DNA from: Lysobacter changpingensis
GTDB taxonomy: Bacteria; Pseudomonadota; Gammaproteobacteria; Xanthomonadales; Xanthomonadaceae
DNA length: 64,000 nucleotides
NCBI RefSeq assembly: GCF_017308985.1
Contig: NZ_JADWPE010000007.1
Coordinates: 124,001 to 188,000 of the forward strand
Direction of reading: 5' to 3'
The translations under genes and the position numbers were made by a program. This document shows, in pieces, positions 11,056-29,371 of this stretch. The notes under the pieces were generated by a model that saw only the letters and a list, made by a program, of their open reading frames with translations, had not been told where the DNA came from and ran no database searches. Positions within the stretch are counted from its first letter, which is position 1; every line of letters begins with the position of its first letter.

Positions 11056-13238
11056 CGTGCGTTCTCCTGCCGCAGCGCATCCAGGTATCGACGACCTGCG
11101 GCATCGCCGTCATCGCGACGCGGAACGGTGGTCGGCGGACGCGGCAGCAGCGGCCACAGCTGCGCGCGCAACTCGCGGCGGCACGGCACGCACGCCGGCT
11201 CGGCGCGCAGCGCATCGATCGCGGCGATCAGCGACAGCGGATCGGCCACACGCGATTCGTTGGCACGCAGCCAGCGGTCGAGCGAGGCAAAGTCGATGTC
11301 GCGCGCGACACCGTCATCGACGTGCGCCTCGTCCAGCGCCTGCCACAGCTGCAGGAGCGCCGGATCCGGCGGCGTCGCCGCGACCAGTGCATCGCCGCGA
11401 CGCGCGATGCCCGCGCGGTCGCCGGTCATGCGACGCGATTCGTCGATCGGCGGAAGCTCCGGGCCCACGCGCGCGAGGTAGATGCGGCTGGCCTGCTGCA
11501 CCTGCTTGATGTGCTTGAGCGCGGTGTATGCGTAGGGCAACGCCTGGTCCGGATGCCCCTGGCGCAGATGACCTTCCGACTGCCACATCGCGTCGAGCGC
11601 GAGTTTCAGCGTGGCGCGCGTTTCCGGATCGAGCAGCGTCGCGGCTTCGGCGTGGTCGTGCGTGTGGCCGTATTCCTCGAGCACCGCGCCTTCCTGGCCG
11701 AACGTCGCGGGCGTCGCGGGTTCGTCGTGCGCATGATCGTCGGCGGGTTCGTCGGCGTGTTCGTGCTCGTCTGTGGCCTCGGTCTGCGACTCGGTGACCG
11801 CGGAAACATCGTCCGACGTCGGCGGCGGCTTCGGCGCACCTTCGGCCTCTTCGCCGAGGAACTGGCCGTAACGCAGGCGCAGGATGCGCTGGTCGACACC
11901 GATCGCGTCGCTGCGGCGCAGGTATTCGGTGGCATCGAGCCGGCGCTTCTCCTTCAGCAGCGCTTCGGCATCGATGATGATCTGCCGCTGGCTGCGGAAG
12001 TACGCCGGCATCACCTTGCGCACCATGCCTTCCATGTCGCTGGTTTCGGTGCCCAGATCCGACGGCCAGCGCAGGATCAGGCTCGCGCTGCGCGCGTTCT
12101 GCGGCGATGGCGTGCGGTTGTCTTCCACTTCCAGCTGCGCGATCAGGTCGTCGCCCACCGCGAAGCCGAGCGAGCGCAGATCGAGCGAATGCGCGAAGCG
12201 CTTGGTCGTTGCGCTGCCTGTGCCACGCAGCGCGACCGTCTGTTCGCGGAAGGTGATGTTCTCGCCGCTGCCCTGCGCGAGGGTGACGCGCAGCTTCGCG
12301 GTGTTCGCGATGCCGTAATCGTCGGTGGCTTCGAACGAGACGGCCCACGCCTTCTGGTTCGCGGTGGCGAGGCTGAGGCTGCGATCGGGTTCGAGCACGC
12401 GCACCTGCGGCGGGCGGTCGGCGACGGCATCCAGGCGATGCGGCTTCGCGTCGCGCAGCGGCGGCGCATCCTTCAGGCTCAGTCGATACAGCGCCGAGCG
12501 CGTGAGCACGTGCTCGCCGCGCCAGATCTCGCCATCGCGACGCAGCGCGACGCGGCGGCCGTCGTGGAAGACCAGTTCGGCGGCAGCGGGCTGCGGCGCA
12601 AGGCGCAGCGTCCACGCAAGCTTCGTGCCCAGCGGCGCGCGCGTGTCGAGCGAAGGTTCGTCGCGCGCGGCCTGCCGCGTGTAGGCGGGCGGCGCGACGC
12701 GCAGGTTCTGTTCGACGATGCGCGTGTGCGTCGGCCTGGCGGCTTCGCCACTGAGCTGCGCGACGACGTCGTCGAAGGCCTGCGCGGGGCGATTCGGCCA
12801 TAACAGCGCGGCGGCGAACACGATGGCGGCGATCGCCACTGAAAGCACGATCGCGCGCGTCGACCAGCGCGGACGGAGCTCCGGCGCCGCGCCGCGCTCA
12901 AGACGGTCGATCAGGCGAGCACGCTGGAGGCGTTCGAGCGTCGTCAGCGACGCTTCGTGCGCGAACAGCAGGTCCGTGCTGTCTTCCATGTCCGGGCGCG
13001 TCGCGTCCAGGCGCTGTACGAGCCAATGCGTGTCGAGCTTGCGCGCGCGATGCATTGCGAACGCCACGACGACGGCGGCCGTGATGAGGAACGACGCGAC
13101 GGCGATGCCGACGCCTTGCCATCGCCAAGCGATGGCTGCGACGGCGAAGGCCCAAGGCAGCGTGCGCGCGATGGCGTCGAGCGCGACGCGCGTGCGGGCG
13201 TGCTGCAAGGTCTGGCGCAGCAGCGTGGTCGCGTTCAT
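11052..13238 (-). CDS. DUF4175-like membrane protein
   Basis: 728 residues. Two N-terminal transmembrane helices (LPWAFAVAAIAW, then VASFLITAAVVVAFAM) precede a helical stretch, a third helix (AIVLSVAIAAIVFAAALLW) and a long periplasmic domain with beta-sandwich-like text and a coiled-coil region near 430-560. A His/Glu/Asp-rich segment (DEHEHADEPADDHAHDE, ~residues 505-521, then EYGHTHDHAEAA) could bind metal. The ATG at 13238 forms ATGA with the upstream stop, and this decides the start over a longer frame to 13316. Part of the MoxR/DUF58/BatA-type operon; DUF4175 proteins have this genomic context but no established biochemistry. Confidence 0.8.
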   Translation of the reverse strand: MNATTLLRQTLQHARTRVALDAIARTLPWAFAVAAIAWRWQGVGIAVASFLITAAVVVAFAMHRARKLDTHWLVQRLDATRPDMEDSTDLLFAHEASLTTLERLQRARLIDRLERGAAPELRPRWSTRAIVLSVAIAAIVFAAALLWPNRPAQAFDDVVAQLSGEAARPTHTRIVEQNLRVAPPAYTRQAARDEPSLDTRAPLGTKLAWTLRLAPQPAAAELVFHDGRRVALRRDGEIWRGEHVLTRSALYRLSLKDAPPLRDAKPHRLDAVADRPPQVRVLEPDRSLSLATANQKAWAVSFEATDDYGIANTAKLRVTLAQGSGENITFREQTVALRGTGSATTKRFAHSLDLRSLGFAVGDDLIAQLEVEDNRTPSPQNARSASLILRWPSDLGTETSDMEGMVRKVMPAYFRSQRQIIIDAEALLKEKRRLDATEYLRRSDAIGVDQRILRLRYGQFLGEEAEGAPKPPPTSDDVSAVTESQTEATDEHEHADEPADDHAHDEPATPATFGQEGAVLEEYGHTHDHAEAATLLDPETRATLKLALDAMWQSEGHLRQGHPDQALPYAYTALKHIKQVQQASRIYLARVGPELPPIDESRRMTGDRAGIARRGDALVAATPPDPALLQLWQALDEAHVDDGVARDIDFASLDRWLRANESRVADPLSLIAAIDALRAEPACVPCRRELRAQLWPLLPRPPTTVPRRDDGDAAGRRYLDALRQENAR

Positions 13239-14407
13239 GGCGCCACCGCGCGTCGCGACGACGTCGCGAGCCAGCGTTCGAGCAGGAAGACCAGCGCGAT
13301 GAGCAACGCCAGCCATGGCTGGAGATCGCGCGGCGAGATCGGGAACGTCGTTCCGCCCGTCAGCGGATCATGTTCACCGGAAAGAGCGCGCGACGGCGAT
13401 GCAGGCGGCGGTTCGAGCGCGTCGCGCAGGTACTGCGGGAACGTGGCGTCGAGCAGCTGCGGCATCGCCTGCGGAGTGAGCGTGCGCGTAAAGCGCAGCA
13501 CACGGCCGTGACCGTAGGCGGCGCCTTCGATGAGGGCCGAACCGGCTTCGTCGCGCCACAACGTTGCCCATGCGGGCACTTCTGCGGTCAAGGGAAGGTG
13601 CGCACCGACGTCCAGCAGCAGCGTGCCGCCATTGCGCGCCCAGTCGCGGACATTCGTCGGAACATCGCCCGCCGAGAGCCACGCGAGCTGCTCGGCGTTG
13701 GCAGGCAAGGGCTGTCCGATAGGCGCGATATCCACCTTCGCGTTCACGTTGGCCGGCTGCCACGCGAGCGAAGCGGCGCGCAGGTAACGCGCGGCGGCCG
13801 CACGATCGGGCGCATGGCGCACAATCAATGTCGGAGCGGCAGGTGCCTTCTGCGCCACTTCCGCCGGCATCGCACCCGGCACGACGCGCCAGTCGATCTT
13901 TCGCGACAGCACGATGCGCCGGCCATCGGCATGATCGATGCGCTCCGGCACGAACACGGTCAGCGCGACCTCTTCCGGCAGGTTCGCATCGAGCTCGCGC
14001 AACAGGCTCGGAAGCGATGCGTGGGCCGCATCCGGCATCGCCTCTACTTCCGGAAAACCCAGCGCCAGCCAATGCCAACGCGCCTGCGGCGAATCGAACG
14101 CCGCTCGCGCTTTTGCCAGATCGACGCCCGGCGTCACGGCGACGTACGGTGCATGCGATTCACCGCCGTGAAGCACGGGACGCGCGAGCAGCAGCGCCAT
14201 CAGCGCGACCAGCAGCAGGCGCACGATCAGCAGCGGCCATTCGTCGAAGCGGATGCGATGACGGGGCTTGGGTTTCTGCCGCAGCCAGCGCAGCGCGGCG
14301 AACGCGGTCGGGCGCTGCTCGCTGCGCCGCGCCAGGTGGATCGCCAGCGGGATCAGCAGTGCGCCCAGTGCGGCCAGCGCGGCGGGAATCAGGAACGCGA
14401 GGCTCAC
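13235..14407 (-). CDS. BatA-type N-terminal membrane-domain protein
   Basis: 390 residues. It begins MSLAFLIPAALAALGALLIP, the first helix of the BatA N-terminal (aerotolerance regulator) domain, followed by the signature HLARRSEQRPTAFAALRWL and a second helix WPLLIVRLLLVALMALLLARP. A periplasmic Rossmann-like region follows, with a final helix LQPWLALLIALVFLLERWLA close to the C-terminus. The MIDAS motif (DxSxS) of a full von Willebrand A domain is not seen, so it is not a complete Bat protein. Start and stop both overlap neighbours by 4 nt (ATGA), which indicates a translationally coupled operon. Confidence 0.83.
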   Translation of the reverse strand: MSLAFLIPAALAALGALLIPLAIHLARRSEQRPTAFAALRWLRQKPKPRHRIRFDEWPLLIVRLLLVALMALLLARPVLHGGESHAPYVAVTPGVDLAKARAAFDSPQARWHWLALGFPEVEAMPDAAHASLPSLLRELDANLPEEVALTVFVPERIDHADGRRIVLSRKIDWRVVPGAMPAEVAQKAPAAPTLIVRHAPDRAAAARYLRAASLAWQPANVNAKVDIAPIGQPLPANAEQLAWLSAGDVPTNVRDWARNGGTLLLDVGAHLPLTAEVPAWATLWRDEAGSALIEGAAYGHGRVLRFTRTLTPQAMPQLLDATFPQYLRDALEPPPASPSRALSGEHDPLTGGTTFPISPRDLQPWLALLIALVFLLERWLATSSRRAVAP

Positions 14408-15318
14408 GCGTACTCCGCGGCGTCGCGCGCGCCGAACAGCCGCCGCAGCGGCAGGTCGAGCGGCTGGTCGAGCACGTATTCGGCATGGCGGATGCCGCTG
14501 GAATCCAGCCGCGCATCGAGTTCACGCCGCGCCTGCGTGAAGCGCGCGAGGAACTCCGCGCGCATCGCCGCACCGTCGCCAAGCAGTTCCTCGCCCGTTT
14601 CCGGGTCGTGGAAGCGATGGCCGCCGCTGAAGGGGAAGTCGCGCTCCTCGGCGGTGAGGATGCGCACGGTCAACACTTCGCGACGTGCCGCCGCAAGGCG
14701 CGTCATCACGTCGATGGCGCCTTCGTCGAAGCCGTCGCTGAGCAGCACCACCAGATCGCCCGCGCCGATGCGTTCCCACAGCGGGCGCAGCTTCTCCGGC
14801 GATGGCCACTGCCCGCGTGCCTCAAGCCCGTGCAGTTCGAGCAGGAAACGGTCGCGCTGGCGCAGCCCCGCGCCGGGCGCGAGCAGGCGCACGCCGTCGT
14901 CGCGCAACGCGACCAGGCCGAAGCGATCGCCCTGTCGTAGCGCGAGTTCGGCGACGCAGGCAGCCAATCCTTTTGCGGCCGAAAGCCGCGACCAGCCCGG
15001 CCGCGCCTTGTCTTCCTGCGCCATCGACGCGCTCGCGTCGATCAGCAACCACGCGGCAAGCGGACTTTCGCGTTCGGCTTCGCGAACGAAGAAGCGATCC
15101 GAGCGCGCGTAGAGCTTCCAGTCGATCTGGCGCAGTTCGTCGCCCGGCTCGTACGCGCGGTACTGCGCGAATTCCAGTCCCGCGCCGCGACTGCGGCTGT
15201 GATGCAGCCCGAGCCCCTGCAGCCCGACCGCGCGTCGCGAGGTCAGGCGCAGGTCCTTCAGCCGCGCGCGCACGGCGGGCGGGATGAAGTCGGCGATGCG
15301 GGTACCGGGCGCGTTCAT
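14404..15318 (-). CDS. DUF58 domain protein
   Basis: 304-residue cytosolic protein of the DUF58/vWA-like family that accompanies MoxR ATPases. It has the DUF58 core (GDELRQIDWKLYARSDRFFV) and a MIDAS-like motif in LLIDASASMAQ (DxSxS at ~residues 93-97), so a metal-dependent adhesion-type fold is likely. It sits directly after moxR (13-nt spacer) and overlaps the BatA-like gene by 4 nt. In characterised relatives, MoxR plus vWA proteins act as a chaperone pair for maturation of periplasmic or metal enzymes; the client here is unknown. Confidence 0.9.
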   Translation of the reverse strand: MNAPGTRIADFIPPAVRARLKDLRLTSRRAVGLQGLGLHHSRSRGAGLEFAQYRAYEPGDELRQIDWKLYARSDRFFVREAERESPLAAWLLIDASASMAQEDKARPGWSRLSAAKGLAACVAELALRQGDRFGLVALRDDGVRLLAPGAGLRQRDRFLLELHGLEARGQWPSPEKLRPLWERIGAGDLVVLLSDGFDEGAIDVMTRLAAARREVLTVRILTAEERDFPFSGGHRFHDPETGEELLGDGAAMRAEFLARFTQARRELDARLDSSGIRHAEYVLDQPLDLPLRRLFGARDAAEYA

Positions 15319-15331
15319 CGGAACGTGGCGA

Positions 15332-16327
15332 TCAGCCGGTGAACGGCACCGCGCGCAGCAGCGCGGCGATCACGTCGTCGGCGCTCTTCTGCTCGGCTTC
15401 CGCGGCGAACGACAACAGCAGGCGATGGCGCATCACCGGCGCGGCGAGCGCGGCGATGTCCTCGCGCGTCGCGGCGAGGCGGCCGTGCAGCAGCGCACGC
15501 GCCTTCGCGGCGAGGACCAGCGACTGGCCCGCGCGCGGACCGGCGCCCCACTTCACCCACTGCTTCACTTCGTCGGGAACGTCGGCGCCGGGGCGCGTGG
15601 CGCGCACCAGGCGCGTGACCCACGCGAGCAGGTCGTCGCCGAAATGCACCTCGCGCACCAGCGCCTGCAGCGCGAGCACTTCCTCGCCGTGCATCACGCT
15701 GGGCACGTGCGCGCTGTGCGTGCCGGTGGTCTGCGCGAGGATGTCGCGCTCCTCGCGCTCGGTCGGGTAATCCACGCGGATGTGCAGCAGGAAGCGGTCC
15801 AGCTGCGCTTCGGGCAGCGGATACGTGCCGGCCTGTTCGATCGGGTTCTGCGTCGCCAGCACGAAGAACGGCGCCGGCAGCGTGTGCGTCACGCCGGCAT
15901 AGCTGACGGTGCGTTCCTGCATCGCTTCCAGCAGCGCGGCCTGCGTCTTCGGCGGAGTGCGATTGAGTTCGTCGGCGAGCAGCAGGTTGGTGAAGATCGG
16001 GCCCGGCTGGAAGCGGAAATGGCGATGGCCGGTGCCGTGGTCTTCTTCCAGCAGTTCCGTGCCGAGGATGTCGCTGGGCATCAGGTCGGGCGTGAACTGG
16101 ACGCGGCGGAACTGCAGTTCCAGCGCCTGTCCGAGCGAGCGCACCAGCAGCGTCTTGCCCAGGCCCGGAACGCCTTCGAGCAGGCAGTGGCCACCGGCGA
16201 GCAGGCCGATGAGCAACTGCTCGACGACGGATTCCTGTCCGACGATCGCCTGCGCGATGGCGTTGCGCAGCGTGCCGAGGCGTTCGAGCTGGGTCTTGAG
16301 TTGCGCTTCGGTGAGGGTGTGGTTCAT
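15332..16327 (-). CDS. MoxR-family AAA+ ATPase
   Basis: 331 residues, the usual MoxR length. Walker A is GVPGLGKT near residue 55, Walker B LLLADELNRTPPKTQAALLEAM near residue 120, sensor 1 VLATQNPIEQAGTYPLPEAQ, and the lid domain ends with LLSFAAEAEQKSADDVI. MoxR ATPases act as chaperones with vWA-domain partners. The ATG at 16327 was chosen because the protein then begins MNHTLTEAQLKTQLERLG like its family; the frame is open far upstream only because of high G+C. First gene of the five-gene operon down to 9217. Confidence 0.93.
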   Translation of the reverse strand: MNHTLTEAQLKTQLERLGTLRNAIAQAIVGQESVVEQLLIGLLAGGHCLLEGVPGLGKTLLVRSLGQALELQFRRVQFTPDLMPSDILGTELLEEDHGTGHRHFRFQPGPIFTNLLLADELNRTPPKTQAALLEAMQERTVSYAGVTHTLPAPFFVLATQNPIEQAGTYPLPEAQLDRFLLHIRVDYPTEREERDILAQTTGTHSAHVPSVMHGEEVLALQALVREVHFGDDLLAWVTRLVRATRPGADVPDEVKQWVKWGAGPRAGQSLVLAAKARALLHGRLAATREDIAALAAPVMRHRLLLSFAAEAEQKSADDVIAALLRAVPFTG

Positions 16328-16354
16328 GTGTGGAGTCCGTGTTCGCTCTTGCTC

Positions 16355-16438
16355 GTCATTCCCGCGCACGCGGGAATCCAGTGCCTTCGTCGTCCGCCCT
16401 GAAGTCGCTGGATCCCCGCTTTCGCGGGGATGACGACC
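16355..16438. repeat. Paired CCCGCG hairpin repeat between DUF4159 and moxR genes
   Basis: Two palindromes in tandem: ATTCCCGCGcaCGCGGGAAT at 16358-16377 and ATCCCCGCtttCGCGGGGAT at 16412-16431, the second followed by TGACGAC. This is the common 'GGATCCCCGCTTTCGCGGGGATGA' dispersed unit of Xanthomonadaceae. It separates the DUF4159 gene from moxR and probably ends or attenuates the upstream transcript. Confidence 0.7.
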
Positions 16439-16446
16439 CTGGGGCA

Positions 16447-17148
16447 TCAACTGCTCAACGCATACATCACGATGTTGACGGCGAACTTCGTGTTGTCCTC
16501 GGCGAGGAAACGCTTGTTGCGCCAGTCGTAATCCCACTCGCAGCCGTAATCCTTGTTGCTGTAGAGCACGCCCAGGCGGCCGTCGATCTCGATGGCCTTC
16601 AGATAGTCGTGCACCAGGTCGTCGCCCCAGCCGTTGAGTTCGAACGTGGTGGCCGGCGGGCCGTCCTTGAACTCGAAGAAGCTGCGGTACAGCGCGTGGT
16701 TGTTCGGCAGCTTCTTCAGCGCCTTCGGGCCGAAGATCTTCGCCATCTGTTCCTCGAACGACTTGGCGAACAATCCGTCGATGTCGTGGTTGCAGTCGTC
16801 CACGAAGACGAAGCCGCCGTTGCGCACGTAACGCTCGAAGTTGCGCCGCTCGGCCGGATTGAAGTCCACCAGCTTGTGGCCGGCGAGGTAGCAGAAGGGC
16901 GCCGTGAGCATCTTCGGATCGGCCAGCGCCAGCACGTGCTCCTTCGGGTCCACGCGCAGGTGGGTGTAGTCGATCAGCGAGGTGATCAGGTTCGCCGGCA
17001 TCCGCTGGTCGACGTCCCAGTCGCCGGAGTCGTACTTCAACCGCGTCAGCCAGAAGTCGTAATCCGCAGCCGCCGCCTGCGCGAGAGGCGGCAGCATCGC
17101 GGCTGCCGCGCTTCCCAGCATCAGGCGGAGGAACTGCGCGCGGTTCAT
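16447..17148 (-). CDS. DUF4159 exported protein
   Basis: 233 residues. Signal peptide MNRAQFLRLMLGSAAAAMLPPLAQA, then a DUF4159 domain (YDFWLTRLKYDSGDWDVDQR; GGFVFVDDCNHDIDGLF; LYSNKDYGCEWDYDW). DUF4159 has a glutamine-amidotransferase-like fold but lacks a known activity. The ATG at 17148 overlaps the TldD stop by 4 nt, so it is translated in coupling with the Tat-exported TldD protein, and both should reach the periplasm. This ties the TldD/TldE genes to the MoxR operon next door. Confidence 0.85.
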   Translation of the reverse strand: MNRAQFLRLMLGSAAAAMLPPLAQAAAADYDFWLTRLKYDSGDWDVDQRMPANLITSLIDYTHLRVDPKEHVLALADPKMLTAPFCYLAGHKLVDFNPAERRNFERYVRNGGFVFVDDCNHDIDGLFAKSFEEQMAKIFGPKALKKLPNNHALYRSFFEFKDGPPATTFELNGWGDDLVHDYLKAIEIDGRLGVLYSNKDYGCEWDYDWRNKRFLAEDNTKFAVNIVMYALSS

Positions 17149-18770
17149 ATCGACCGCGCGGTATTGATGACGTTGATTCCGTTGAACCGCGCCGTAGCCG
17201 CGCCGTGCGACACCGCCGAGACCTGGCTCGGCTGGCCCTTGCCGTCGAAGAACGAACCGTTGAGGCGGAAGTCGCGCTCGTCGCAGATCGCCACGCACGC
17301 GTTCCAGAATTCCGGCGTGCGGATCTGGTACGCGGCGTCTTCAACCAGGCCGGTGACCTTGCCGTTCCTGATCTCGTAGAACAGCTGGCCGCCGAACTGC
17401 GCGTTGTAGCGCTGCTGGTCGATGGAATACGACCCGCGGCCGTGCACATACAGGCCGTTTTCGACGTCCTTGACCATGTCGGCGACGCTGAGCGGCGTCT
17501 TGCCCGGCATCAGCGAAACGTTCGCCATGCGCTGGAACTGCACGCTCGACCACGAATCGGCGTAGCTGCAACCGTGCGATTCGGTGTGGCCGAGGATGTG
17601 CGCTTCATCGCGCGTGGCCTGGTAATCGACGAGTACACCATCGCGCACCAGGTCCCACTGCTTCGTCTTCACGCCTTCGTCGTCGTAACCGACCGCGCCG
17701 AGGCTGCCCGGACGCGTCTTGTCGGCGACGAAGTTGACGATGTCGCTGCCCCACTTGTAGCCCGCGTCGCGCTTGTCGAGCGTGGCGAAGCTGGTGCCGG
17801 CGTAATTGGCTTCGTAGCCGAGCACGCGGTCGAGTTCGAGCGGATGGCCGACGTTCTCGTGGATGGTGAGGAACAGGTTCGTCGGGTCGATGACCAGGTC
17901 GTACTTGCCCGGCTTCACCGACGGTGCCTTGAGCTTCGCGCGTGCGTCACGCGCGGCCTGCACCGCGTCTTCCACCACGTCGTAGCTGGTGGCGTATGCG
18001 GTGATGCCGCCGGGCAGCGCGCGCTTGCCGGCCGCCGCGCCGTCCAGGTATTCGTAGCCCATGCCCATCGGTGCGGACAGGCCATTGCGCGTGCGGAACT
18101 TGCCGCTCGCCTTGTCCACCGCGGTGGCCGTCACCGGCAGCCAGATGCGGTGGATGTCCTGGCCGACGTAGCTGCCATCGGTGGACGCGAAGTACTTCTG
18201 TTCGTTGATGAGGAACAGCGTGGAGTTGAAGAAATCCGCGCCGGCCTTCATCGCCGCGGCATTGACCGACAGCAGCAGGTCGACCTTGTCCTTGATCGGC
18301 ACTTCCATGCCGTTCTTGCGGATAGGCGTGGCCCAGCGCACCTCGCCCAATGCGGGCGTGGGCGCCAGTTCGACCTTGCGCGTCTGGTTGCGCGCGTTGG
18401 CCTTCGCGATCGACAACGCGGTGCGCGTCGCCTGCGCGACGGCTTCCGGCGTCTGCACGTGCGTGGCGGCGAAACCCCACGCGCCGTCGGCGAGCACGCG
18501 CACGCCGACGCCGGAAGACTCGGCGTTGACGACGTTCTCCACGCGCGCTTCGCGGGTGATGACCGACTGGCGCAGGTAACGGCCGATGCGCACGTCGGAA
18601 TACTGCGCGCCGCCAGCACGGGCCGTAGCGAGCGCGGCGTCGGCGAGCTGCCGACGACGCGCATGATCGACCGGTTCCAGCAGCGCTTCCGCAGCAACGC
18701 TGCGCCCGAACGGGAGCAGCGCGCCTGCCGTGGTCAAACCGGTAAAGCTGAGGAAATCACGACGTTGCAC
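17145..18770 (-). CDS. Tat-exported TldD-like metallopeptidase (copy A)
   Basis: 541-residue member of the TldD/PmbA (peptidase U62) family. It starts MQRRDFLSFTGLTTAG, a twin-arginine (RRDFL) signal with hydrophobic core and AAEA-type cleavage site. The zinc motif HExxxH is intact as HENVGHPLE near residue 320, followed by DRVLGYEANYAGTSF. E. coli TldD is cytosolic, so a Tat signal implies periplasmic action here. It lies 15 nt after the TldE-like gene and overlaps the DUF4159 gene by 4 nt. It is a close paralogue of the gene at 20144-21772, co-linear over its full length. Substrate unknown; E. coli TldD/E matures microcin B17 and degrades CcdA. Confidence 0.92.
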   Translation of the reverse strand: MQRRDFLSFTGLTTAGALLPFGRSVAAEALLEPVDHARRRQLADAALATARAGGAQYSDVRIGRYLRQSVITREARVENVVNAESSGVGVRVLADGAWGFAATHVQTPEAVAQATRTALSIAKANARNQTRKVELAPTPALGEVRWATPIRKNGMEVPIKDKVDLLLSVNAAAMKAGADFFNSTLFLINEQKYFASTDGSYVGQDIHRIWLPVTATAVDKASGKFRTRNGLSAPMGMGYEYLDGAAAGKRALPGGITAYATSYDVVEDAVQAARDARAKLKAPSVKPGKYDLVIDPTNLFLTIHENVGHPLELDRVLGYEANYAGTSFATLDKRDAGYKWGSDIVNFVADKTRPGSLGAVGYDDEGVKTKQWDLVRDGVLVDYQATRDEAHILGHTESHGCSYADSWSSVQFQRMANVSLMPGKTPLSVADMVKDVENGLYVHGRGSYSIDQQRYNAQFGGQLFYEIRNGKVTGLVEDAAYQIRTPEFWNACVAICDERDFRLNGSFFDGKGQPSQVSAVSHGAATARFNGINVINTARSI

Positions 18771-21772: not shown

Positions 21773-22172
21773 TGTTGTAGTACCCCCGGAGTGGGCCCGC
21801 GGACGCCGGAACGGCGGGCGGGCAGGCGATCGAGACAAAATCGCACCGACTGTGGGTGGGGGGCTCGGGGGCCGTCAAGTGACGAACGGGCTATAGGGGC
21901 GCCCTCCACGGCCGGGCGCGGATGGAACTGTGCGCTCGGTTCGCCGGCGCGCGGACAGGATCGAGCCACTGTGCGGAGTCGGGCCGTTCGCTGGGATGTG
22001 ATGGCGCGCGGGCGCGATGTTCCTGAACCCGAGCGCCAGCGGTGGGCTCACTCGGCAACGCACGGGGGAGCCGCCCGGTGCGAGCGATCACCGCGACAGG
22101 AGTGGCAGCCGTCTTCCCGGCCCGGAGCGCGCGACGCACGGAGACGATGCGTCGCGGCTCCGTGAGGTCGGG
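21773..22172. other. 400-bp intergenic region before tldD copy B
   Basis: No gene is supported here. The right part holds the hairpin at 22123-22162; the left part presumably contains the promoter of the minus-strand tldD operon, but no clear -35/-10 pair was recognised. Small open frames across it have no ribosome site or recognisable product. Confidence 0.4.
22123..22162 (-). terminator. Long G/C hairpin after the SdrD_B-like gene
   Basis: Near-perfect stem CGGAGC-GC-GCGACGCA (22123-22138) with TGCGTCGC-G-GCTCCG (22148-22162), 9-nt loop, beginning 10 nt past the stop of the minus-strand gene at 22173. There is no T-run, so it is a strong stem but an atypical terminator. Confidence 0.55.
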
Positions 22173-23342: not shown

Positions 23343-23603
23343 TCAGCGCCCGACCATGAAGCCGCTGTCGCCTTCCGTCAGCGTTCCGCCGTGATCAGTC
23401 TTGTCGCCGACCGTGGCTGCCGCCTTTCCATCGATCACGAACCCAGCCGAGCCGCTGACGATCGTCGCGCCGCAACTGGTTCTGTCGCCGACGCGGGCGA
23501 CCGCGCGGCCATTGCTGGTGAATGCGTTGGCACCCGAGACGACGGTGCCCTTGCCATGAATCGGACACTCATGCGCGTGTCCGACGAGAACGAGAGGTTT
23601 CAT
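23343..23603 (-). CDS. PAAR-domain protein (T6SS spike tip)
   Basis: 86-residue stand-alone PAAR protein: MKPLVLVGHAHECPIHGKG, then repeated beta-turn units with GDRTSCG and GDKTDHG whose His/Cys residues form the zinc-bound tip. PAAR proteins sharpen the VgrG spike of type VI secretion systems and can carry effectors; here no effector domain is attached. GGAG lies 6 nt before the ATG. It sits 66 nt after the stop of a truncated hcp on the same strand; no other T6SS genes are nearby, so it is an orphan left by a rearrangement or served by a T6SS elsewhere. Confidence 0.87.
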   Translation of the reverse strand: MKPLVLVGHAHECPIHGKGTVVSGANAFTSNGRAVARVGDRTSCGATIVSGSAGFVIDGKAAATVGDKTDHGGTLTEGDSGFMVGR

Positions 23604-23669
23604 CTTCGACTCCGAAGCATCGACTCTGGAAAGAATCGGGCGCCGCCCCACGCGGCGCCCGATCCGACA

Positions 23670-23837
23670 TCACGCCGTCAGCGGCGCGCGCCAGTCGTCC
23701 GAACCGGAGGTGCCGGCGACGGTGTGCTCCCAGGTGATCTTGCGGTAGGCCATCGACACTTCGATCAGCTGCGTGTAGTTGTCCGAGTTCCGGATCTCAA
23801 CTACCTGCTTCGCCTGCAGGCGCACGGCGTCGATATC
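23670..23837 (-). pseudogene. hcp: 3' fragment of hcp (T6SS tube protein)
   Basis: The last ~40-55 codons of an Hcp-family gene: SDNYTQLIEVSMAYRKITWE followed by HTVAGTSGSDDWRAPLTA and a stop. This matches the conserved C-terminal strands of Hcp tube proteins. Upstream the frame stays open but the text stops resembling Hcp near 23837, and roughly the first two thirds of the gene (Hcp is ~160-170 residues) are gone. The loss coincides with the start of the accessory island, so the island junction or a later deletion removed the 5' part. It cannot make a functional tube. Confidence 0.72.
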
Positions 23838-23846
23838 GGTGCCCTC

Positions 23847-24080
23847 GTGTTGGGGCAGACATCGGCCCACGCCGGTCGGGCGAGCGCAGTAGCACTCGAG
23901 ATGTGCGTGGCCGCCTTTCGGACCGTCGACGAGTTCGCGCGGACCGCCAGCGGTGATCCGCTCCCCTACCCGGAGCGGGAGCGGTTCTTCGCCTTCCTTT
24001 GCTCGACCTTGATGCAGGACGATTCGAACGAATCGACCACAACGCTCAAGGAACGCCTGATCAGGTTGATGAGCGCATGA
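23847..24080 (+). CDS. Small ORF at the island's left edge, possibly a 3' remnant
   Basis: 77 codons from a GTG at 23847; the frame is open further left but runs into the hcp fragment on the other strand, so the real start may be lost. The C-terminal part looks protein-like (FRTVDEFARTASGDPLPYPE; KERLIRLMSA). I recognise no family. Its stop overlaps the next gene as ATGA, which argues that it was a translated member of the operon. It may be the 3' end of a longer gene whose start was removed by the event that truncated hcp. Confidence 0.45.
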   Translation: MLGQTSAHAGRASAVALEMCVAAFRTVDEFARTASGDPLPYPERERFFAFLCSTLMQDDSNESTTTLKERLIRLMSA

Positions 24081-24796
24081 GCTATAGCCAAGCATTCCAG
24101 CGAGTGATCGTCGCCTTTTCCACACTGCTCCGCGACGCCTGGGCCGGTGTCTTTGCACTGGTATTCGCGAAGAGGCCGAGAACCCTGCGACGCTCTTTTG
24201 CAGCCATCGGAAGCAAACTGGACACATTCTTCTCTGGCGTCTGGTGGTGGCATGCACGCCGATACATGATGGAGAAGCGACTCGGCCAGGCACTTGAACG
24301 ATTCGGGGATAATTCGATTGCTGCCCGCTGGGTAACCGAGCGATACCGCGAGATGCACTTCGCGGTGACGTACTGGCGAAGCGCACCCGCGCTCGTCCGA
24401 CGCGCGGCACTCGCTGCACGCGAAGCCGGCGTATCTGTGAGCGACCTTCGACTGATCGTGCTCAATACCGACCTGCGTATGCGGCGCAACAAGGTCTTTC
24501 TTCGCCGATCGACCCTCATGCGCGTGCTATCCGCCGCATTCGCCACGATCGTATGCGTGCATTGGGTTCTGATGAACTGCCTCGTCGTGCTTGCACTTGG
24601 GGCGGCATGGCTCAAGGTCCTCGCGATCGTGTGCATCTTCGTCGTCTATGCGACGCTGTATCGAGGCTGGAGCCTCTTCGGGTACCGCGCGATAGCTGCC
24701 GTCGACCGATCAGGAAATCTGCTGGATCAGGTTTGCGTACAAACCCAGAATGCACACGCTGCAGATCCGCAACCAACTGTGCTCAAACGCCGCTGA
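24077..24796 (+). CDS. Hypothetical two-TM membrane protein
   Basis: 239 residues, no recognised family. The first ~165 residues are basic/aromatic and helical (FSGVWWWHARRYMMEKRLG; RAALAAREAGVSVSDLRLIV). Two adjacent transmembrane helices follow at roughly 170-220 (LSAAFATIVCVHWVLMNCLV and WLKVLAIVCIFVVYATLYRG). A cytosolic tail ends QPTVLKRR. The start overlaps the stop of the small upstream ORF (ATGA) and the SPFH gene begins 27 nt after its stop, so the three look co-transcribed. Association with an SPFH protein suggests a membrane-linked complex, but that is inference only. Confidence 0.65.
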   Translation: MSYSQAFQRVIVAFSTLLRDAWAGVFALVFAKRPRTLRRSFAAIGSKLDTFFSGVWWWHARRYMMEKRLGQALERFGDNSIAARWVTERYREMHFAVTYWRSAPALVRRAALAAREAGVSVSDLRLIVLNTDLRMRRNKVFLRRSTLMRVLSAAFATIVCVHWVLMNCLVVLALGAAWLKVLAIVCIFVVYATLYRGWSLFGYRAIAAVDRSGNLLDQVCVQTQNAHAADPQPTVLKRR

Positions 24797-24823: not shown

Positions 24824-25423
24824 ATGTTCGGTTTGCGCTATGTCAAAGCCAGTCCAAGCACCTACCTTATTCAATACCGCAACGGGCAACCGGTACGGGA
24901 GGGCACAGGATTGGCCTTCTTCTATTTCGCCCCCAACGCCTCCCTGGTCTCAGTGCCTCTGGAGAGCGTCGACGTTGCCTTCATGTTCAATGAGGTGAGC
25001 AGCGACTTCCAGGCCGTAACGGCGCAGGGGCAGGTGACCTATCGCGTCGCCGATCCCAAGCTCCTGGCCAGCCTGATGAACTTCACCCTCAAGCCTAACG
25101 GCGAGTATGTCTCGGAGGATCCTTCGCGACTGCCACAGCGCGTAGTCAACGCTGCACAGGTGCAGTTACGCTCGGTCCTGTCCGGGCAGACCCTGCAAGA
25201 ACTGCTGCGCGGCTCCGAACGACTGGTGCAAACCGTGCGCGAAGGTCTTCGTCGGCCGGATGGGCTTCCTGGTCTTGGGCTGGAACTGGTCAACCTCTCC
25301 GTGCTGGCCGTGCGACCTAATCCGGAAACCGCGCGCGCACTAGAAGCGACGGTTCCCGAGCCGGCAGCAACCGAAACGATGTACCGACGCAGTTTCCCTC
25401 GCGGAAGGGATCGCGATGAGTGA
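24824..25423 (+). CDS. SPFH (band-7/flotillin-type) domain protein, short
   Basis: 199 residues. The text follows the SPFH domain from start to end: GLRYVKASPSTYLIQYRNGQ, GTGLAFFYFAPNASLVSVPL, FQAVTAQGQVTYRVADPKLL, then VNAAQVQLRSVLSGQTLQEL and LGLELVNLSVLAVRPNPETA. SPFH proteins scaffold membrane microdomains and prohibitin-like rings. Relatives continue ~80-140 residues in a coiled-coil tail; here the frame ends at RRSFPRGRDRDE just where that tail would begin, so the protein is probably C-terminally truncated or frameshifted. It overlaps the next ORF by 8 nt (ATGAGTGA). Confidence 0.78.
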   Translation: MFGLRYVKASPSTYLIQYRNGQPVREGTGLAFFYFAPNASLVSVPLESVDVAFMFNEVSSDFQAVTAQGQVTYRVADPKLLASLMNFTLKPNGEYVSEDPSRLPQRVVNAAQVQLRSVLSGQTLQELLRGSERLVQTVREGLRRPDGLPGLGLELVNLSVLAVRPNPETARALEATVPEPAATETMYRRSFPRGRDRDE

Positions 25424-25941
25424 ACTGGAGACCTTCTGGAGTCGACGCTTCAGTACTGAGTTTACTGACGAAGAAATCGACGAGCGGACGAAGATTGTCC
25501 CCCAACCACTTGGCTCGCTTGCCGAGTTCCCGATAGAAGTAGCGGAGTGGAAATTGGATGTTGCGCTCAGGACACACTTCGTCCCTAGCACCCAGACTCG
25601 CAGTATTCTGCGTCAACTCCACGCACTTTGCCGCTGTTACAGCGAGCAGCGATACCCTGGCCACGTCGCGTTCCTGAGGAATGTGCACTCTAGCGATGCG
25701 GAGCACGTCCTATCCAGTAAAGGTCGTACAGCACCCTGCGGCCAAGGCATACGAGCAACGTCTAGGTCAAGCAGCTTTGGCCGGCTCCATGACACCGTCC
25801 GAGCGACTGCACTCTGGCCTCACAGAACAAGGTGAACCAAGAGCACGCAGGGCCAAGGAACCTCCAAAGCCCAAGGTCACCGGAGAAGCCTTGCTCGAGG
25901 GTGCTGTGGCGCTTAACAACAGCCTAAGGCCAAGAACCTAA
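25416..25941 (+). pseudogene. Unidentified ORF pair, probably one gene broken by a frameshift
   Basis: A frame opens at ATG 25416 with GGAAGG at good distance and reads MSELETFWSRRFSTEFTDEE, then LHALCRCYSEQRYPGHVAFL, and runs to 25835. From about 25690 on, the next frame (open 25681-25941) is more protein-like (KVVQHPAAKAYEQRLGQAAL; ARRAKEPPKPKVTGEALLEG), whereas the first frame becomes Ser/Arg shadow text. The simplest reading is one gene of ~170 codons with a frame change around 25650-25700. No family is recognised. An alternative is two overlapping genes, which the overlap length makes unlikely. Confidence 0.4.
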
Positions 25942-26025
25942 CTGCCCGCCGAATCGCCCCACTAGAGCAGAACTACGTTGCGTCTGGATGGCGCTGACCA
26001 GCTAAACCCAGGGAGGAAGGAGAGA

Positions 26026-26394
26026 ATGGCACTGCAATTGACAACATCAAAACAGTTGCTGCGCGAGCCCGGACGATATGCCTGGTCGCCCCTGCTATGC
26101 AGTACGATGCTGGGCATCTCCCTCCAAGAATTGGCCTTCATTCTTGGCGTAAGCGAGTTTGCTCTGCACCGTCGGCCAGACGCCCCCATTGTGCAGCGAA
26201 GGCTCGGCGCCTTCGCCGAAGTCTTAGACTGGCTGTTGGTGATCACGCCAGACGTGGAGTCTGCTGCGTTTCATTTGAAGAATACCCCGATACGGGCGTT
26301 GAAGCAGCGGACGCTCCTCGAGACGATCGGCGACGGCGAATACGAGAAAGCTCTCCGCTACCTGCAAACGATCGTCGGCGGCCAGAATGGATAA
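26026..26394 (+). CDS. Xre/MbcA/ParS-like antitoxin (DUF2384-type)
   Basis: 122 residues. Start at ATG 26026 is set by a strong ribosome site (AGGAAGGAGAGA). The N-terminal half carries a helix-turn-helix-like stretch (STMLGISLQELAFILGVSEF). The C-terminal half resembles the toxin-binding domain of MbcA/ParS antitoxins (PIRALKQRTLLETIGDGEYE, then KALRYLQTIVGG). Such genes normally precede a RES-domain NAD-degrading toxin, but only ~75 nt separate this stop from the end of the convergent tniQ gene and no RES frame is seen. It may be an orphan antitoxin or an anti-addiction gene. The assignment rests on pattern and could be wrong. Confidence 0.55.
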   Translation: MALQLTTSKQLLREPGRYAWSPLLCSTMLGISLQELAFILGVSEFALHRRPDAPIVQRRLGAFAEVLDWLLVITPDVESAAFHLKNTPIRALKQRTLLETIGDGEYEKALRYLQTIVGGQNG

Positions 26395-26469: not shown

Positions 26470-27471
26470 TCATGAAACCTGCTTCTCAATCGCCACCGAA
26501 CGAACACATGGTTCAGCCTGCTCCGCATCTCCATTCCTCTCACTTCGCTTAATACTGAGCTGCAGAAATAGCTCTTCCATGGACCCTCCGTGAGATGCGA
26601 GGGTTAAAGCCAAGTGGTACAACGAGATATGAGGCCGCCACCGCGGACGCGGAGACAGGAGAAGGTGTTGGAAATGGCGGGTGAACCACGCCCTGACCTG
26701 CGGACGCCCCTGCAGGTCCCGGATGGCCTCACGGATCATCGTTTCAACGGCAACACGTGAAGTGCGGGCCCGCTCTGCGACAAGATCATGAATATCCGAA
26801 AGGCGCGCACAACCTGTATCGCGCCAGCGCCAGGACACCAACTCTGTATAACAGTGAATCGCGGAGTCAGATTCATTGATACGCGCACCGCTGCCCGATC
26901 CGACCTGTAGAGCTCCCGTGCGTGACATAGGAAAATGAGAAAGCGGGCGTTGAAGATTCGCAGGACGCTCTTCCAACATCTCATGATGGGAGGGGCAAAA
27001 CTCAATGCCCGCTGCCTGATGAATTCTCCTGAACCATGTGAAGCCTTCTGCCTCCATGGCGTCTATCTGACAGCGCCTACAGAATTTCGTTCGATGCCGA
27101 GCCGGTAGTAAGCAAGCGTGCTCGTGCAAGGCACTTCGCGTGTAATAGTCAAGGGCCTTGGCGCCATCTCTGGAGTGCATGCTGAGAACTAGCATGTACC
27201 CCATCCCATGCCTCCATGCGTACGGATGAAGCTCCTCCTCAGTATCAGCGCTGGCGAGCAGCCGGAGCACTTGCGCCGCCGCAAGAGAAGAGTCGAGTCC
27301 CCCTCCCATCGATTGGCCCCCGCCCGACCACTTTTCGATCATCCTTGGAACGGAATCTAGGTTGTTGAGCGCCGCAGTCCGATAGAGGTGCCCCCACACA
27401 GTCTCATCGGGCTTCGCCTTGGGAACCAGTATCTGCGACTGGTTCCATCCAAAGGACGAAGGAGGAGTCAT
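26470..27471 (-). CDS. tniQ: TniQ/TnsD-like target-selection protein
   Basis: 333 residues. The N-terminus has the TniQ opening pattern PKAKPDETVWGHLYRTAAL, and the zinc-binding part reads CRRCQIDAMEAEGFTWFRR followed by HQAAGIEFCPSHHEMLEE (CxxC...W.R.HQ..G..FC..H), the hallmark of TniQ/TnsD. In Tn7, TnsD binds the 3' end of glmS and directs insertion just beyond it; this gene lies exactly there, in the same orientation as glmS. It is shorter than TnsD (508) and somewhat shorter than other TniQ proteins (~400). Its ATG falls inside the second TnsB-type repeat of the element's end, leaving no room for tnsABC on this side. SD GGAG is not found, so expression may be weak. Confidence 0.8.
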   Translation of the reverse strand: MTPPSSFGWNQSQILVPKAKPDETVWGHLYRTAALNNLDSVPRMIEKWSGGGQSMGGGLDSSLAAAQVLRLLASADTEEELHPYAWRHGMGYMLVLSMHSRDGAKALDYYTRSALHEHACLLPARHRTKFCRRCQIDAMEAEGFTWFRRIHQAAGIEFCPSHHEMLEERPANLQRPLSHFPMSRTGALQVGSGSGARINESDSAIHCYTELVSWRWRDTGCARLSDIHDLVAERARTSRVAVETMIREAIRDLQGRPQVRAWFTRHFQHLLLSPRPRWRPHISLYHLALTLASHGGSMEELFLQLSIKRSERNGDAEQAEPCVRSVAIEKQVS

Positions 27472-27516
27472 GACAGACTTAATTAATCCGTACAGACTTT
27501 ATTGTTCGTAATCACA
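27471..27516 (-). repeat. Tn7-like transposon end (glmS-proximal terminus) with two TnsB-type repeats
   Basis: Read on the minus strand from 27516: TGTGATTACGAACAATAAAG continuing TCTGTACGG. The block ACAATAAAGTCT is identical to the outermost TnsB-binding repeat of the Tn7 right end as I recall it (TGTGGGCGGACAATAAAGTC). A second copy, AATTAAGTCTGTCA at 27484-27471, follows 19 nt inside the first, AATAAAGTCTGTAC at 27503-27490. The terminal TGTG lies 22 bp beyond the glmS stop codon, the standard Tn7 insertion distance and orientation. The adjacent ACGAC (27517-27521) is the candidate 5-bp target duplication; its partner at the other end was not located. Confidence 0.78.
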
Positions 27517-27538
27517 ACGACCGAACGTGCCCGGGGAA

Positions 27539-29371
27539 TTACTCCACCGTCACCGACTTCGCCAGATTCCGCGGCTTGTCCACGTCGGTACCGCGCGCCA
27601 GTGCGGCGTGGTACGCCAGCAGCTGCACCGGGATCGCATGCACCACCGGCGACAGCACGCCGACGTGACGCGGGGCGCGGATGACGTGCACGCCTTCGGA
27701 GGCGCCGAACTGGCTGTCCTCGTCGGTGAAGACGAACAGCTCGCCGCCGCGGGCGCGCACTTCCTGCATGTTGGACTTCACCTTCTCCAGCAGCGTGTCG
27801 TTCGGCGCGATGACCACCACCGGCATCGCGGCGTCCACCAGGGCGAGCGGGCCGTGCTTGAGTTCGCCCGCCGGGTAGGCCTCGGCATGGATGTAGGAGA
27901 TTTCCTTGAGCTTGAGCGCGCCTTCCAGCGCGATCGGGTAATGCACGCCGCGGCCGAGGAACAGCGCGTGCTGCTTCGGCGCGAAGCGCTCGGCCCAGGC
28001 GGTGATCTGCGGCTCCAGGTTCAGCGCGTGCTGCACGCTGCCGGGCAGGAAGCGCAGCGCGTCCAGGTACTGGCCTTCCTGCTCCACGCCCAGGCGGTCG
28101 TTCAGCTTCGCCAGCGTTGCGGCCAGCGTGAACAGCGCCACCAGCTGCGTGGTGAAGGCCTTGGTGGATGCCACGCCGATCTCGGCGCCGGCGCGCGTGT
28201 AGTACACCAGCCGGCTGGCGCGCGGGATGGCGCTTTCGGGCACGTTGCAGATGGACAGCGTGCGGTCGTGGCCCAGCGACTTGGCGTACTTCAGCGCTTC
28301 CATCGTGTCGAGCGTTTCGCCCGACTGCGAGATGGTGACGATGAGGTGCTTCGGGTTGGCAACGGCCTTGCGGTAGCGGTATTCGCTGGCGATTTCGACC
28401 GAGCACGGCAAGCCGGAGATGGCTTCGATCCAGTAACGCGCGGTGAGGCCGGCGTAGTAGCTGGTGCCGCAGGCGAGGATCTGCACGCCTTCGACGCCGC
28501 GCAACACGTCCTCCGCGCTCGCGCCGAACAGCAGCGGACTGAACGCGTTGGCGTCCATCACCGCCTCGATGGTGTCGGCGATGGCGCGCGGCTGCTCGTG
28601 GATTTCCTTCTGCATGAAGTGGCGGTACGGGCCCAGCTCCAGCGAGGCGAGCGACACGTCGGACACGTGCACTTCGCGTTCGATCGGCGCATTGTTCGCA
28701 TCGAACACGCGCACGCCCTCGCGGGTCACTTCGGCGGTGTCGCCTTCTTCGAGGAAGATCACCTGGCGCGTGGCCTGCACGATCGCGGACACATCGCTCG
28801 CGACGAAATTCTCGCCCTCGCCCAGCCCCACCAGCAGCGGGCAGCCCATGCGTGCGGCGATGAGGCGGCCGGGTTCGCGCTTGCTGACCACGGCGATGGC
28901 GTAGGCACCGACGAGTTCACGCACCGAGTTCTGCACGGCCGTCAGCAGATCCGCGCCCTGCGACTGGTGGAAGTGGATCAGGTGCGCGATGACCTCGGTG
29001 TCGGTCTGCGACTCGAACACGTAGCCCTTCGCGCGCAGGGCTTCGCGCTGCTCGTCGTGATTCTCGATGATGCCGTTGTGCACCACCGCCAGCTCGCCGA
29101 AGGAGATGTGCGGATGCGCGTTGGCTTCGGTCACGCCGCCGTGCGTGGCCCAGCGCGTGTGGCCGATGCCGAGCGTGGCGTGGAAGTCCTCGGACTGCGC
29201 GGCGGCCTCCATCTCGGCCACACGGCCGGTGCGGCGCACGCGGCGGACGTCGGCACCGTCCAGGACGGCGATACCGGCGGAGTCGTAGCCGCGGTATTCC
29301 AGGCGCTTGAGGCCTTCGATCAGCACCGGTACCACGTCGCGATCGGCGATCGCACCCACAATTCCGCACAT
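27539..29371 (-). CDS. glmS: Glutamine--fructose-6-phosphate aminotransferase (isomerising)
   Basis: 610-residue cytosolic enzyme making glucosamine-6-phosphate from fructose-6-phosphate and glutamine, the first committed step to UDP-GlcNAc for peptidoglycan and LPS. The Cys nucleophile follows Met1 (MCGIVGAI) for the class-II glutaminase half ([16 protein letters not shown]). Two SIS isomerase domains follow ([40 protein letters not shown]). The C-terminus NLAKSVTVE is the invariant end that encodes the TnsD binding site attTn7, and a Tn7-like end lies just downstream. It is separated from glmU by an efflux cluster inserted on the opposite strand. Confidence 0.98.

What the first reader, a model, noticed from the sequence alone, without database searches (positions are those of the whole stretch)
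27471..27516. A Tn7-like terminus exactly at attTn7, with tniQ as the first gene
Seen directly: TGTG terminus 22 bp past the glmS stop, two TnsB-type repeats (ACAATAAAGTCT and AATTAAGTCTGTCA) and a tniQ/tnsD-like ORF whose ATG overlaps the inner repeat. Known: Tn7 inserts downstream of glmS with its right end nearest the gene, and its outer TnsB repeat shares ACAATAAAGTCT. The overlap of end and gene start, with no tnsABC, is an unusual arrangement.
Basis: partly seen in the sequence, partly recalled or inferred. Interest (0 to 1): 0.85.

Follow-up and report, generated by a model that had tools for sequence, protein, structure and literature searches.

The report
Truncated Tn7-like transposon behind glmS
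The bases next to the essential gene glmS look like the surviving end of a Tn7-like jumping element, followed at once by one of its target-choosing genes (tniQ); the rest of the jumping machinery appears to have been lost, and fuller relatives that also carry tniQ next to the end exist in other bacteria.

Summary
At 27473-27516 (minus strand) lies a Tn7-like end: TGTG 22 nt past the glmS stop, then two TnsB-type repeats 19 bp apart. None of 11 congeners has it behind glmS. A glmS-anchored pattern matched 6 of 395 family genomes, three of them with this repeat type; the reversed pattern matched none. The adjoining 333-aa ORF is a TniQ. End plus tniQ first is not unique: G185 has it at glmS, with TnsC-like and TnsB-like genes next to it, and a Pseudomonas plasmid shows two repeats, small tniQ, tnsD and a tnsABC-like operon. 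Only the overlap of repeat and start codon is peculiar to this window. No second end or tnsABC was found here. The cargo shares two genes with a tnsABCD element behind glmS, where they lie close to tnsA; here the one nearer tnsA is cut and abuts an hcp fragment. Best reading: a one-ended, truncated Tn7-like element, probably of the dual TniQ/TnsD kind, with its tniQ frame intact.

The parts
27539..29371 (-). glmS; its 3' end is the attTn7 target
   Evidence: ORF of 610 aa; the same gene in 12 of 12 genus genomes
27517..27538 (-). 22-nt spacer between glmS stop and transposon end; 27517-27521 (ACGAC on +) is the candidate target duplication
   Evidence: duplication untestable without a second end
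27473..27516 (-). glmS-side end of a Tn7-like element: terminal TGTG 27513-27516, TnsB-type repeats 27492-27505 and 27473-27486
26470..27471 (-). tniQ, 333 aa, CxxC...CxxH zinc finger (C131, C134, C159, H162); ATG directly at the inner repeat
   Evidence: Pfam TniQ E=1e-5, 26.6 bits against a cut-off of 27, 28 bits in the genome search; PADLOC TniQ E=2.3e-8; hhalign E=3e-7 alone and 2.3e-11 with G185
26025..26394 (+). cargo ORF, small HTH/antitoxin-like protein (weak)
   Evidence: ORF; Pfam Xre-like-HTH E=0.086 only, on the longer ORF 25978-26394
25416..25835 (+). cargo ORF of unknown family
   Evidence: ORF; no family in Pfam, NCBIfam or PADLOC
24824..25423 (+). cargo, SPFH/Band 7 domain protein
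   Evidence: Pfam Band_7 E=3.9e-18
24077..24796 (+). cargo ORF, predicted membrane protein by eye, 44% identical to a protein of the glmS-located element of G040
   Evidence: tblastn E=5.6e-49; no match among plasmids
23784..24080 (+). 5'-truncated XRE-type regulator (65% identical to residues 50-144 of 146 of the G040 gene)
   Evidence: HTH domain of the G040 gene
23670..23796 (-). C-terminal fragment of hcp (T6SS tube protein), abutting the cut XRE gene at about 23774-23796
   Evidence: TIGR03344 E=7.5e-7, below its cut-off, over model 126-166 of 167; DNA matches to hcp genes in the 20 rows shown end at 23774-23796
23343..23651 (-). PAAR-domain ORF, origin unresolved
   Evidence: NCBIfam T6SS_PAAR E=2.7e-8, below its cut-off

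Best explanation
A Tn7-like transposon inserted behind glmS (attTn7). It was probably of the kind that carries a small TniQ gene against the glmS-side end in addition to tnsABC and a long TnsD. What is left is that end with two TnsB sites, tniQ, and a few cargo genes. The far part (the front of the XRE gene and, by inference, tnsABC, tnsD and the far end) was lost by a deletion or rearrangement that joined the XRE gene to a fragment of hcp. How the ancestor worked, inferred from named families: TnsB binds the repeats at both ends, TnsC links it to a target selector, a TnsD reads the end of glmS, and the small TniQ serves as adaptor for a second, unidentified target selector. Shown: end, position, TniQ homology, relatives with the same layout, truncated XRE abutting hcp. 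Inferred: that tnsABC and tnsD were once present here, the role of TniQ, and that TnsB sites at the tniQ start make TnsB its repressor. As it stands the island should not move as a unit, since no second end was found.
For: End and position. Absent behind glmS in 11 of 11 other genus genomes. Glms-anchored pattern 6 of 395 family genomes, control 0. The same kind of end paired and inverted in Herbaspirillum, and on both sides of tnsA-, tnsB-, tnsC-like ORFs and a tniQ in Zobellella. TniQ. End + tniQ first + TnsC-like gene and TnsB-like C-terminus in G185: (TnsB fragment against CIP-10 TnsB 223, best of 200 shuffles 56; TnsC 426 against 53). End + broken tniQ + far end 3.8 kb away in G236. Two repeats + tniQ + tnsD + tnsABC-like operon on the Pseudomonas CIP-10 plasmid, and a similar order on the P. 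koreensis plasmid. Cargo shared with the tnsABCD element of G040. Cut point. GC3 of tniQ and two cargo genes 0.60-0.69 against 0.91-0.93 for glmS and one chromosomal neighbour.
Against: No tnsABC or second end was ever seen here, so their loss is inferred. The XRE and membrane genes could be a module that also travels without tns genes; they were found in one other element only, and the membrane protein has no match among plasmids. The window TniQ is close to noise against the CIP-10 one in a pairwise test (49, best of 200 shuffles 46), and the terminal TGT of the CIP-10 and P. koreensis ends was not found at the usual distance. The tree of 15 TniQ/TnsD proteins does not group the end-side TniQs, so the shared layout may have arisen more than once. 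The Mu-transpos_C model used to look for TnsB in this genome misses some (no match at E 0.01 for the Zobellella one), so a distant TnsB elsewhere is not excluded; a TniA/TniB locus does exist on contig C3. The tniQ frame is intact although its partners are gone, which fits a recent loss or a retained use.
Confidence: 0.76

Rival explanations
1. A small non-autonomous Tn7-like element that never had tnsABC: end, tniQ and cargo, moved in trans by TnsABC of another element, with its own TniQ helping to choose the target.
For: G236 has both ends 3.8 kb apart, a broken tniQ first and no tns genes that I recognised. Herbaspirillum has two end-bounded stretches without tns genes recognised by eye. 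The window's tniQ frame is intact.
Against: No second end in the window. The XRE gene is visibly cut. The terminal 5-bp flanks of G236 do not match. A version with a tnsABC-like operon exists.
Confidence: 0.12
2. Not a transposon end: a conserved signal that happens to follow glmS, such as a terminator or regulatory site.
For: Similar text stands directly behind glmS in Crenobacter and SZAS-58, and directly behind a gene read as amt in Rhodocyclaceae and Thiobacillus, without tns genes that I recognised nearby.
Against: Absent in 11 of 11 congeners. Inverted pairs bound elements in Herbaspirillum, Zobellella and G236. tniQ or tns genes adjoin such ends in several genomes.
Confidence: 0.03
3. 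End of an IS21-family element rather than a Tn7-like one.
For: An istA-like ORF lies between two such ends in Herbaspirillum (recognised by eye).
Against: That ORF is preceded by different repeats, so it looks like an IS inserted in the element (by eye). Zobellella has TnsB- and TnsC-like ORFs and a TniQ between such ends, and TniQ adjoins the end in the window.
Confidence: 0.02
4. Retained for use: the end and TniQ act as a unit, for example TniQ guiding or blocking later TnsABC-bearing elements at attTn7.
For: The tniQ frame is open and its zinc-finger ligands are kept although no tnsABC was found in the window.
Against: The copy in G236 is broken. No test of selection was made. It lies in 1 of 12 genus genomes.
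Confidence: 0.05

Closest known systems
Dual TniQ-TnsD Tn7-like transposons (Faure et al. 2023, PMC10293859; passages seen)
   Same: A small TniQ beside a longer TnsD and a tnsABC-like operon in the CIP-10 relative; the passages call a small TniQ a general hallmark of elements that use additional target selectors.
   Different: In the relatives tniQ lies against the end, whereas the passages speak of tandem tniQ/tnsD genes. In the window tnsABC and tnsD were not found.
Prototype Tn7 at attTn7 (PMC11406308, passages; PMC2918618, search listing)
   Different: Two repeats 19 bp apart instead of four partly overlapping 22-bp sites; tniQ next to the end instead of tnsA (Tn7 order recalled); no tnsABCDE found.
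Glms-located element of G040 (L163)
   Same: Same bacterial family, same site, homologous XRE and membrane genes.
   Different: It has tnsABCD, a different repeat type (AATAAAGTTCTATCT), and by eye no tniQ next to the end.
Pseudomonas sp. CIP-10 plasmid element, NZ_CP087161.1 (L168)
   Same: Two repeats 20 bp apart, then a small TniQ-family gene.
   Different: Has tnsD and a tnsABC-like operon; lies on a plasmid; 81 bp between repeat and tniQ; its TniQ is only weakly similar (pairwise 49, best of 200 shuffles 46).

Membership tests
Tn7-like transposon | Terminal TGT with several TnsB-type repeats at one end | tested here: met
   TnsB binding itself not tested
Tn7-like transposon | Second, inverted end | tested here: not met
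   apart from the two repeats, no match better than 10 of 14 to the outer repeat between 21.5 and 27.6 kb
Tn7-like transposon | tnsB (and tnsA, tnsC) | tested here: not met
   tblastn (E up to 0.1) of 13 Tns proteins from four elements against the window: only two TnsD hits, both inside tniQ
Tn7-like transposon | TniQ-domain target selector | tested here: met
Tn7-like transposon | 5-bp target duplication | not testable with these tools
   only one end found
attTn7 insertion | Insertion a little over 20 nt behind the glmS stop | tested here: met
   22 nt here; 23 in G185, G236 and G228, 24 in G040, 26 in G298, 21 in Crenobacter, 22 in SZAS-58
Dual TniQ-TnsD group | Small TniQ plus a longer TnsD in one element | tested here: inconclusive
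   small TniQ present; no separate TnsD in the window, present in the CIP-10 relative
CRISPR-associated transposon | cas effector genes and CRISPR array near tniQ | tested here: inconclusive
   6 window ORFs in PADLOC gave only TniQ models, one of them labelled CAS-I-F associated; no regularly spaced array among the 20 direct-repeat families shown of at least 60; no dedicated array search

The most novel reading that the evidence does not exclude
There is a subgroup of Tn7-like elements that keep a small TniQ gene directly behind the target-side end, apart from tnsABC and tnsD, so that the TnsB sites of the end double as its control region. This TniQ would serve a second, unidentified target selector. 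It can outlive the loss of the transposase genes, as in this window and in G236.
Probability: 0.3. Interest if true: 0.55.

Novelty: new variant of a known kind. Interest (0 to 1): 0.4.

Why it matters
Two published surveys start from tnsB or tnsC (the methods passage of PMC8649781 seen requires a TnsB hit; PMC10293859 took TniQ/TnsD encoded near tnsC). Ends with only a tniQ, or with nothing, would escape them. A glmS-anchored end search finds candidates cheaply (6 of 395 genomes) and could give a fuller count of how often attTn7 has been used and then eroded. The recurring end-side tniQ also points to a possible further targeting route.

Tried and rejected
1. IS21 end and generic glmS signal: see rivals. 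2. AlphaFold model of TniQ without an alignment: mean pLDDT 33, not used; no fold search was made. 3. Close relatives of the window TniQ: none among plasmids; none confirmed among 100 pattern stretches in genome contigs; 1 of 12 genus genomes, the window's own. Of 395 family genomes 5 matched, the window's own included: G185 aligned over the TniQ domain and three others only in short stretches. 4. PDB search: 3 matches, best E 0.17, none a TniQ. 5. Family-wide scan for the end with 3 mismatches: 34 of 395 genomes, but the reversed control also matched many, so most are chance; of the 30 loci fetched, only the window's own holds the glmS C-terminus, and L038 later proved to be the far end in G236. 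6. Of the 33 loci with the end pattern in genome contigs I judged by eye 6 to carry a second repeat in register (L085, L086, L089, L090, L094, L095) and L092 to be one end of a pair; the other 26 I took as chance without further test. 7. TniA/TniB on contig C3 as the missing transposase: no end of this type seen near it or elsewhere in the genome; not excluded. 8. TniQ tree: unresolved. 9. The G185 TnsB fragment scored no better than shuffles against three TnsBs, and its TnsC-like neighbour likewise against three TnsCs; hhalign gave E=0.51 for the former and 5.8e-5 for the latter; the CIP-10 proteins made both clear. 10. Island DNA against plasmids: 68 records; the rows shown match only the SPFH gene, a second search of the left part only hcp in the rows shown, and the tniQ half nothing. 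Viral contigs gave no relative of the G185 TnsC; G185 TniQ gave one weak Vibrio match among plasmids. 11. hcp and PAAR were not found in the loci fetched up.

Full report
What was claimed and what is there. The finding names a Tn7-like end at 27471-27516, right behind glmS, with a tniQ-like ORF starting in it and no tnsABC. The letters are as described. On the minus strand glmS stops at 27541-27539; after 22 nt comes TGTG (27516-27513), then ACAATAAAGTCTGT (27505-27492) and TTAATTAAGTCTGT (27486-27473), 19 bp apart. The ORF 27471-26470 starts at the edge of the inner repeat.

Is it more than chance? ACAATAAAGTCT with at most one mismatch occurs once in the 4.06 Mb genome, here, and the reversed control also gives one, so the motif alone would be weak. 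The expected count of the exact 14-mer is 0.0015. The place decides. glmS is present in 12 of 12 genus genomes, but in about 16 kb behind glmS of the 11 others no match of 11 or more of 14 was found. A pattern anchored on the glmS 3' end and requiring TGT and AATAAAG at the right distance matches 6 of 395 family genomes and the reversed pattern none. The six are the window, G185, G236, G298, G040 and G228. The first three share the AATAAAGTC(T/C)GT repeats; G040 and G298 have AATAAAGTTCTATC-type repeats; G228 shows a single AATAAAG and is doubtful.

The end belongs to a known kind. An exact scan of genome contigs for TGTGN{4,9}ACAATAAAGTCTGT gave 33 loci. By eye, six have a second repeat in register: Crenobacter L094 and SZAS-58 L089 directly behind glmS, Rhodocyclaceae L095 and Thiobacillus L090 directly behind a gene that I read as amt, Zobellella L085 and Colwellia L086. 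Zobellella has copies facing each other about 17.7 kb apart, with ORFs between them that I read as tnsA, tnsB and tnsC by size and order; the second and third are 28 and 29% identical to the G040 TnsB and TnsC, the fourth is TniQ by profile. The Zobellella TnsB gave no Pfam match at E 0.01. Herbaspirillum L092/L137 has inverted pairs bounding two stretches. These pairs, and the absence in congeners, mark the sequence as a transposon end and not a glmS signal.

The ORF is TniQ. Pfam TniQ E=1e-5, 26.6 bits, just under its cut-off of 27; 28 bits in the genome search. PADLOC TniQ E=2.3e-8. hhalign against five TniQ/TnsD proteins gives E=3e-7 for the window protein alone and 2.3e-11 together with G185. 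The ligands C131, C134, C159 and H162 align with those of the relatives. NCBIfam gave no match and the PDB search nothing relevant. It is the only PF06527 match in its genome; close relatives were not found.

The layout recurs. G185, of another genus in the family, has the end 23 nt behind glmS, repeats 19 bp apart, and a TniQ-like ORF as first gene, 28-30% identical to the window protein over about 155 residues. Two further ORFs face it: a TnsC-like ATPase (AAA_22 E=9.5e-4, below its cut-off; hhalign E=5.8e-5 to four TnsC/TniB) and an ORF open to the contig edge. In pairwise tests against three TnsCs and three TnsBs neither beat its shuffles, and hhalign gave E=0.51 for the second. Against the proteins of a Pseudomonas plasmid element they score 426 and 223, with the best of 200 shuffles at 53 and 56. 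I take them as TnsC and the C-terminal part of TnsB. G236, of the same genus as G185, has the end, a broken tniQ and a far end with three spaced repeats (by eye), 3846 bp in all, with no tns genes that I recognised in between; its outermost 5-bp flanks do not match, so I claim no target duplication. The plasmid NZ_CP087161.1 of Pseudomonas sp. CIP-10 gives a fuller plan: two repeats 20 bp apart, a TniQ-family gene (343 aa), an IS3 element, a TnsD-family gene on the other strand, then three overlapping genes annotated as hypothetical protein, transposase and AAA ATPase, which I read as tnsA, tnsB and tnsC, then restriction-modification cargo. The P. koreensis plasmid CP027478.1 has two repeats 20 bp apart, a tniQ match in two pieces, and further genes in a similar order. 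In both plasmids the terminal TGT was not found at the usual distance from the repeats. So tniQ next to the end is a layout seen at five places. The contact of the inner repeat with the start codon is seen only in the window: the gap is 81 bp in CIP-10, 90 in P. koreensis, and 35 or 113 in G185 depending on the start codon. In a tree of 15 TniQ/TnsD proteins the end-side TniQs do not group with support, and the window TniQ barely exceeds shuffles against that of CIP-10 (49 against 46), so common descent of the layout is not shown.

What is missing and why. tblastn of 13 Tns proteins from four elements against the whole window finds only the tniQ region. Apart from the two repeats, nothing scores above 10 of 14 between 21.5 and 27.6 kb. 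Similarity to G002 resumes at about 23289 and to G003 at 21897, so by G002 the foreign stretch is about 4.2 kb. Its cargo gives the clue. The membrane protein (24077-24796) and the XRE-type gene beside it are 44% and 65% identical to neighbouring genes of the G040 element, a tnsABCD element behind glmS (TnsA, Mu-transpos_C, TniB/AAA_22 and TnsD matches). There they lie between cargo and tnsA, with one small HTH-like ORF between the XRE gene and tnsA. In the window the XRE gene lacks its first 49 codons. Its similarity starts at 23784, where that of an hcp fragment on the other strand ends (DNA matches in the 20 rows shown end at 23774-23796; NCBIfam Hcp E=7.5e-7 over model 126-166 of 167, below its cut-off). 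I take this as the scar of the event that removed the tnsA side. The inference rests on one comparison element.

Could another element move it? The Mu-transpos_C model finds one TnsB-like protein in this genome, on contig C3, with a TniB; no other copy of this end was found in the genome. That model misses at least the Zobellella TnsB, so a distant TnsB is not excluded. With one end the island should not be cut out as a unit by the usual mechanism.

Literature. Passages of PMC10293859, PMC11406308 and PMC8649781 were read, not the whole texts. They describe dual TniQ-TnsD loci, the small TniQ as hallmark of additional target selectors, glmS as a TnsD target, overlapping TnsB sites in one end, and surveys that start from tnsB or tnsC. 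Searches listed no paper whose title or abstract start describes a tniQ placed alone at the end or amt as a Tn7-like site; this is not proof that none exists.

Verdict. The arrangement is real and partly shared by relatives, and the lack of tnsABC is best explained by truncation. It is a variant of a known kind of element in a decayed state. The open questions are what second target the end-side TniQ serves and whether the intact frame here still does anything.

Noticed in passing
L095 and L090 (ends directly behind the stop of the neighbouring gene), L137:8710-9595 and 9595-18011: The same type of Tn7-like end stands within a few nt of the stop of a gene that reads by eye as the ammonium transporter amt in three genomes (Rhodocyclaceae, Thiobacillus, Herbaspirillum); a possible further attachment site. 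One paper search listed no report of it.
   Followed up: partly
L137:8710-18011 (Herbaspirillum lusitanum): Two neighbouring stretches each bounded by inverted ends and without tns genes recognised by eye; the smaller contains an istA-like ORF, the larger reads as metabolic and transport cargo.
   Followed up: partly
L145:6637-10345 (G000 contig C3): TniA- and TniB-like genes with a third ORF that resembles small TniQ only by eye; a Tn7 relative in the same genome.
   Followed up: partly
L161 (G236:C4:68073-71918): 3846-bp element with both ends, a broken tniQ and other ORFs but no tns genes recognised; the outermost 5-bp flanks do not match.
   Followed up: partly
L164 (G228), 0-3.1 kb behind glmS: A pattern match behind glmS with a single AATAAAG, followed by two ORFs on the opposite strand, by eye of defence type; whether it is a transposon end is open.
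   Followed up: no
window 23343-23796: PAAR-domain ORF and hcp C-terminal fragment; not found in the loci fetched up.
   Followed up: partly
L138:346-359 (Crenobacter): A second, weaker copy of the outer repeat in the same orientation 5 kb from the glmS-side end, as if an older element had been displaced.
   Followed up: no
L047 (G308) and L038 (G236): Two AAGTCTGT-type repeats in a row, as in a transposon end; L038 is the far end in G236, L047 was not placed.
   Followed up: partly
L169:9836-11104 (CP137918.1): A relative of the G185 and CIP-10 TnsC lies beside IS30 elements on a small resistance plasmid.
   Followed up: no
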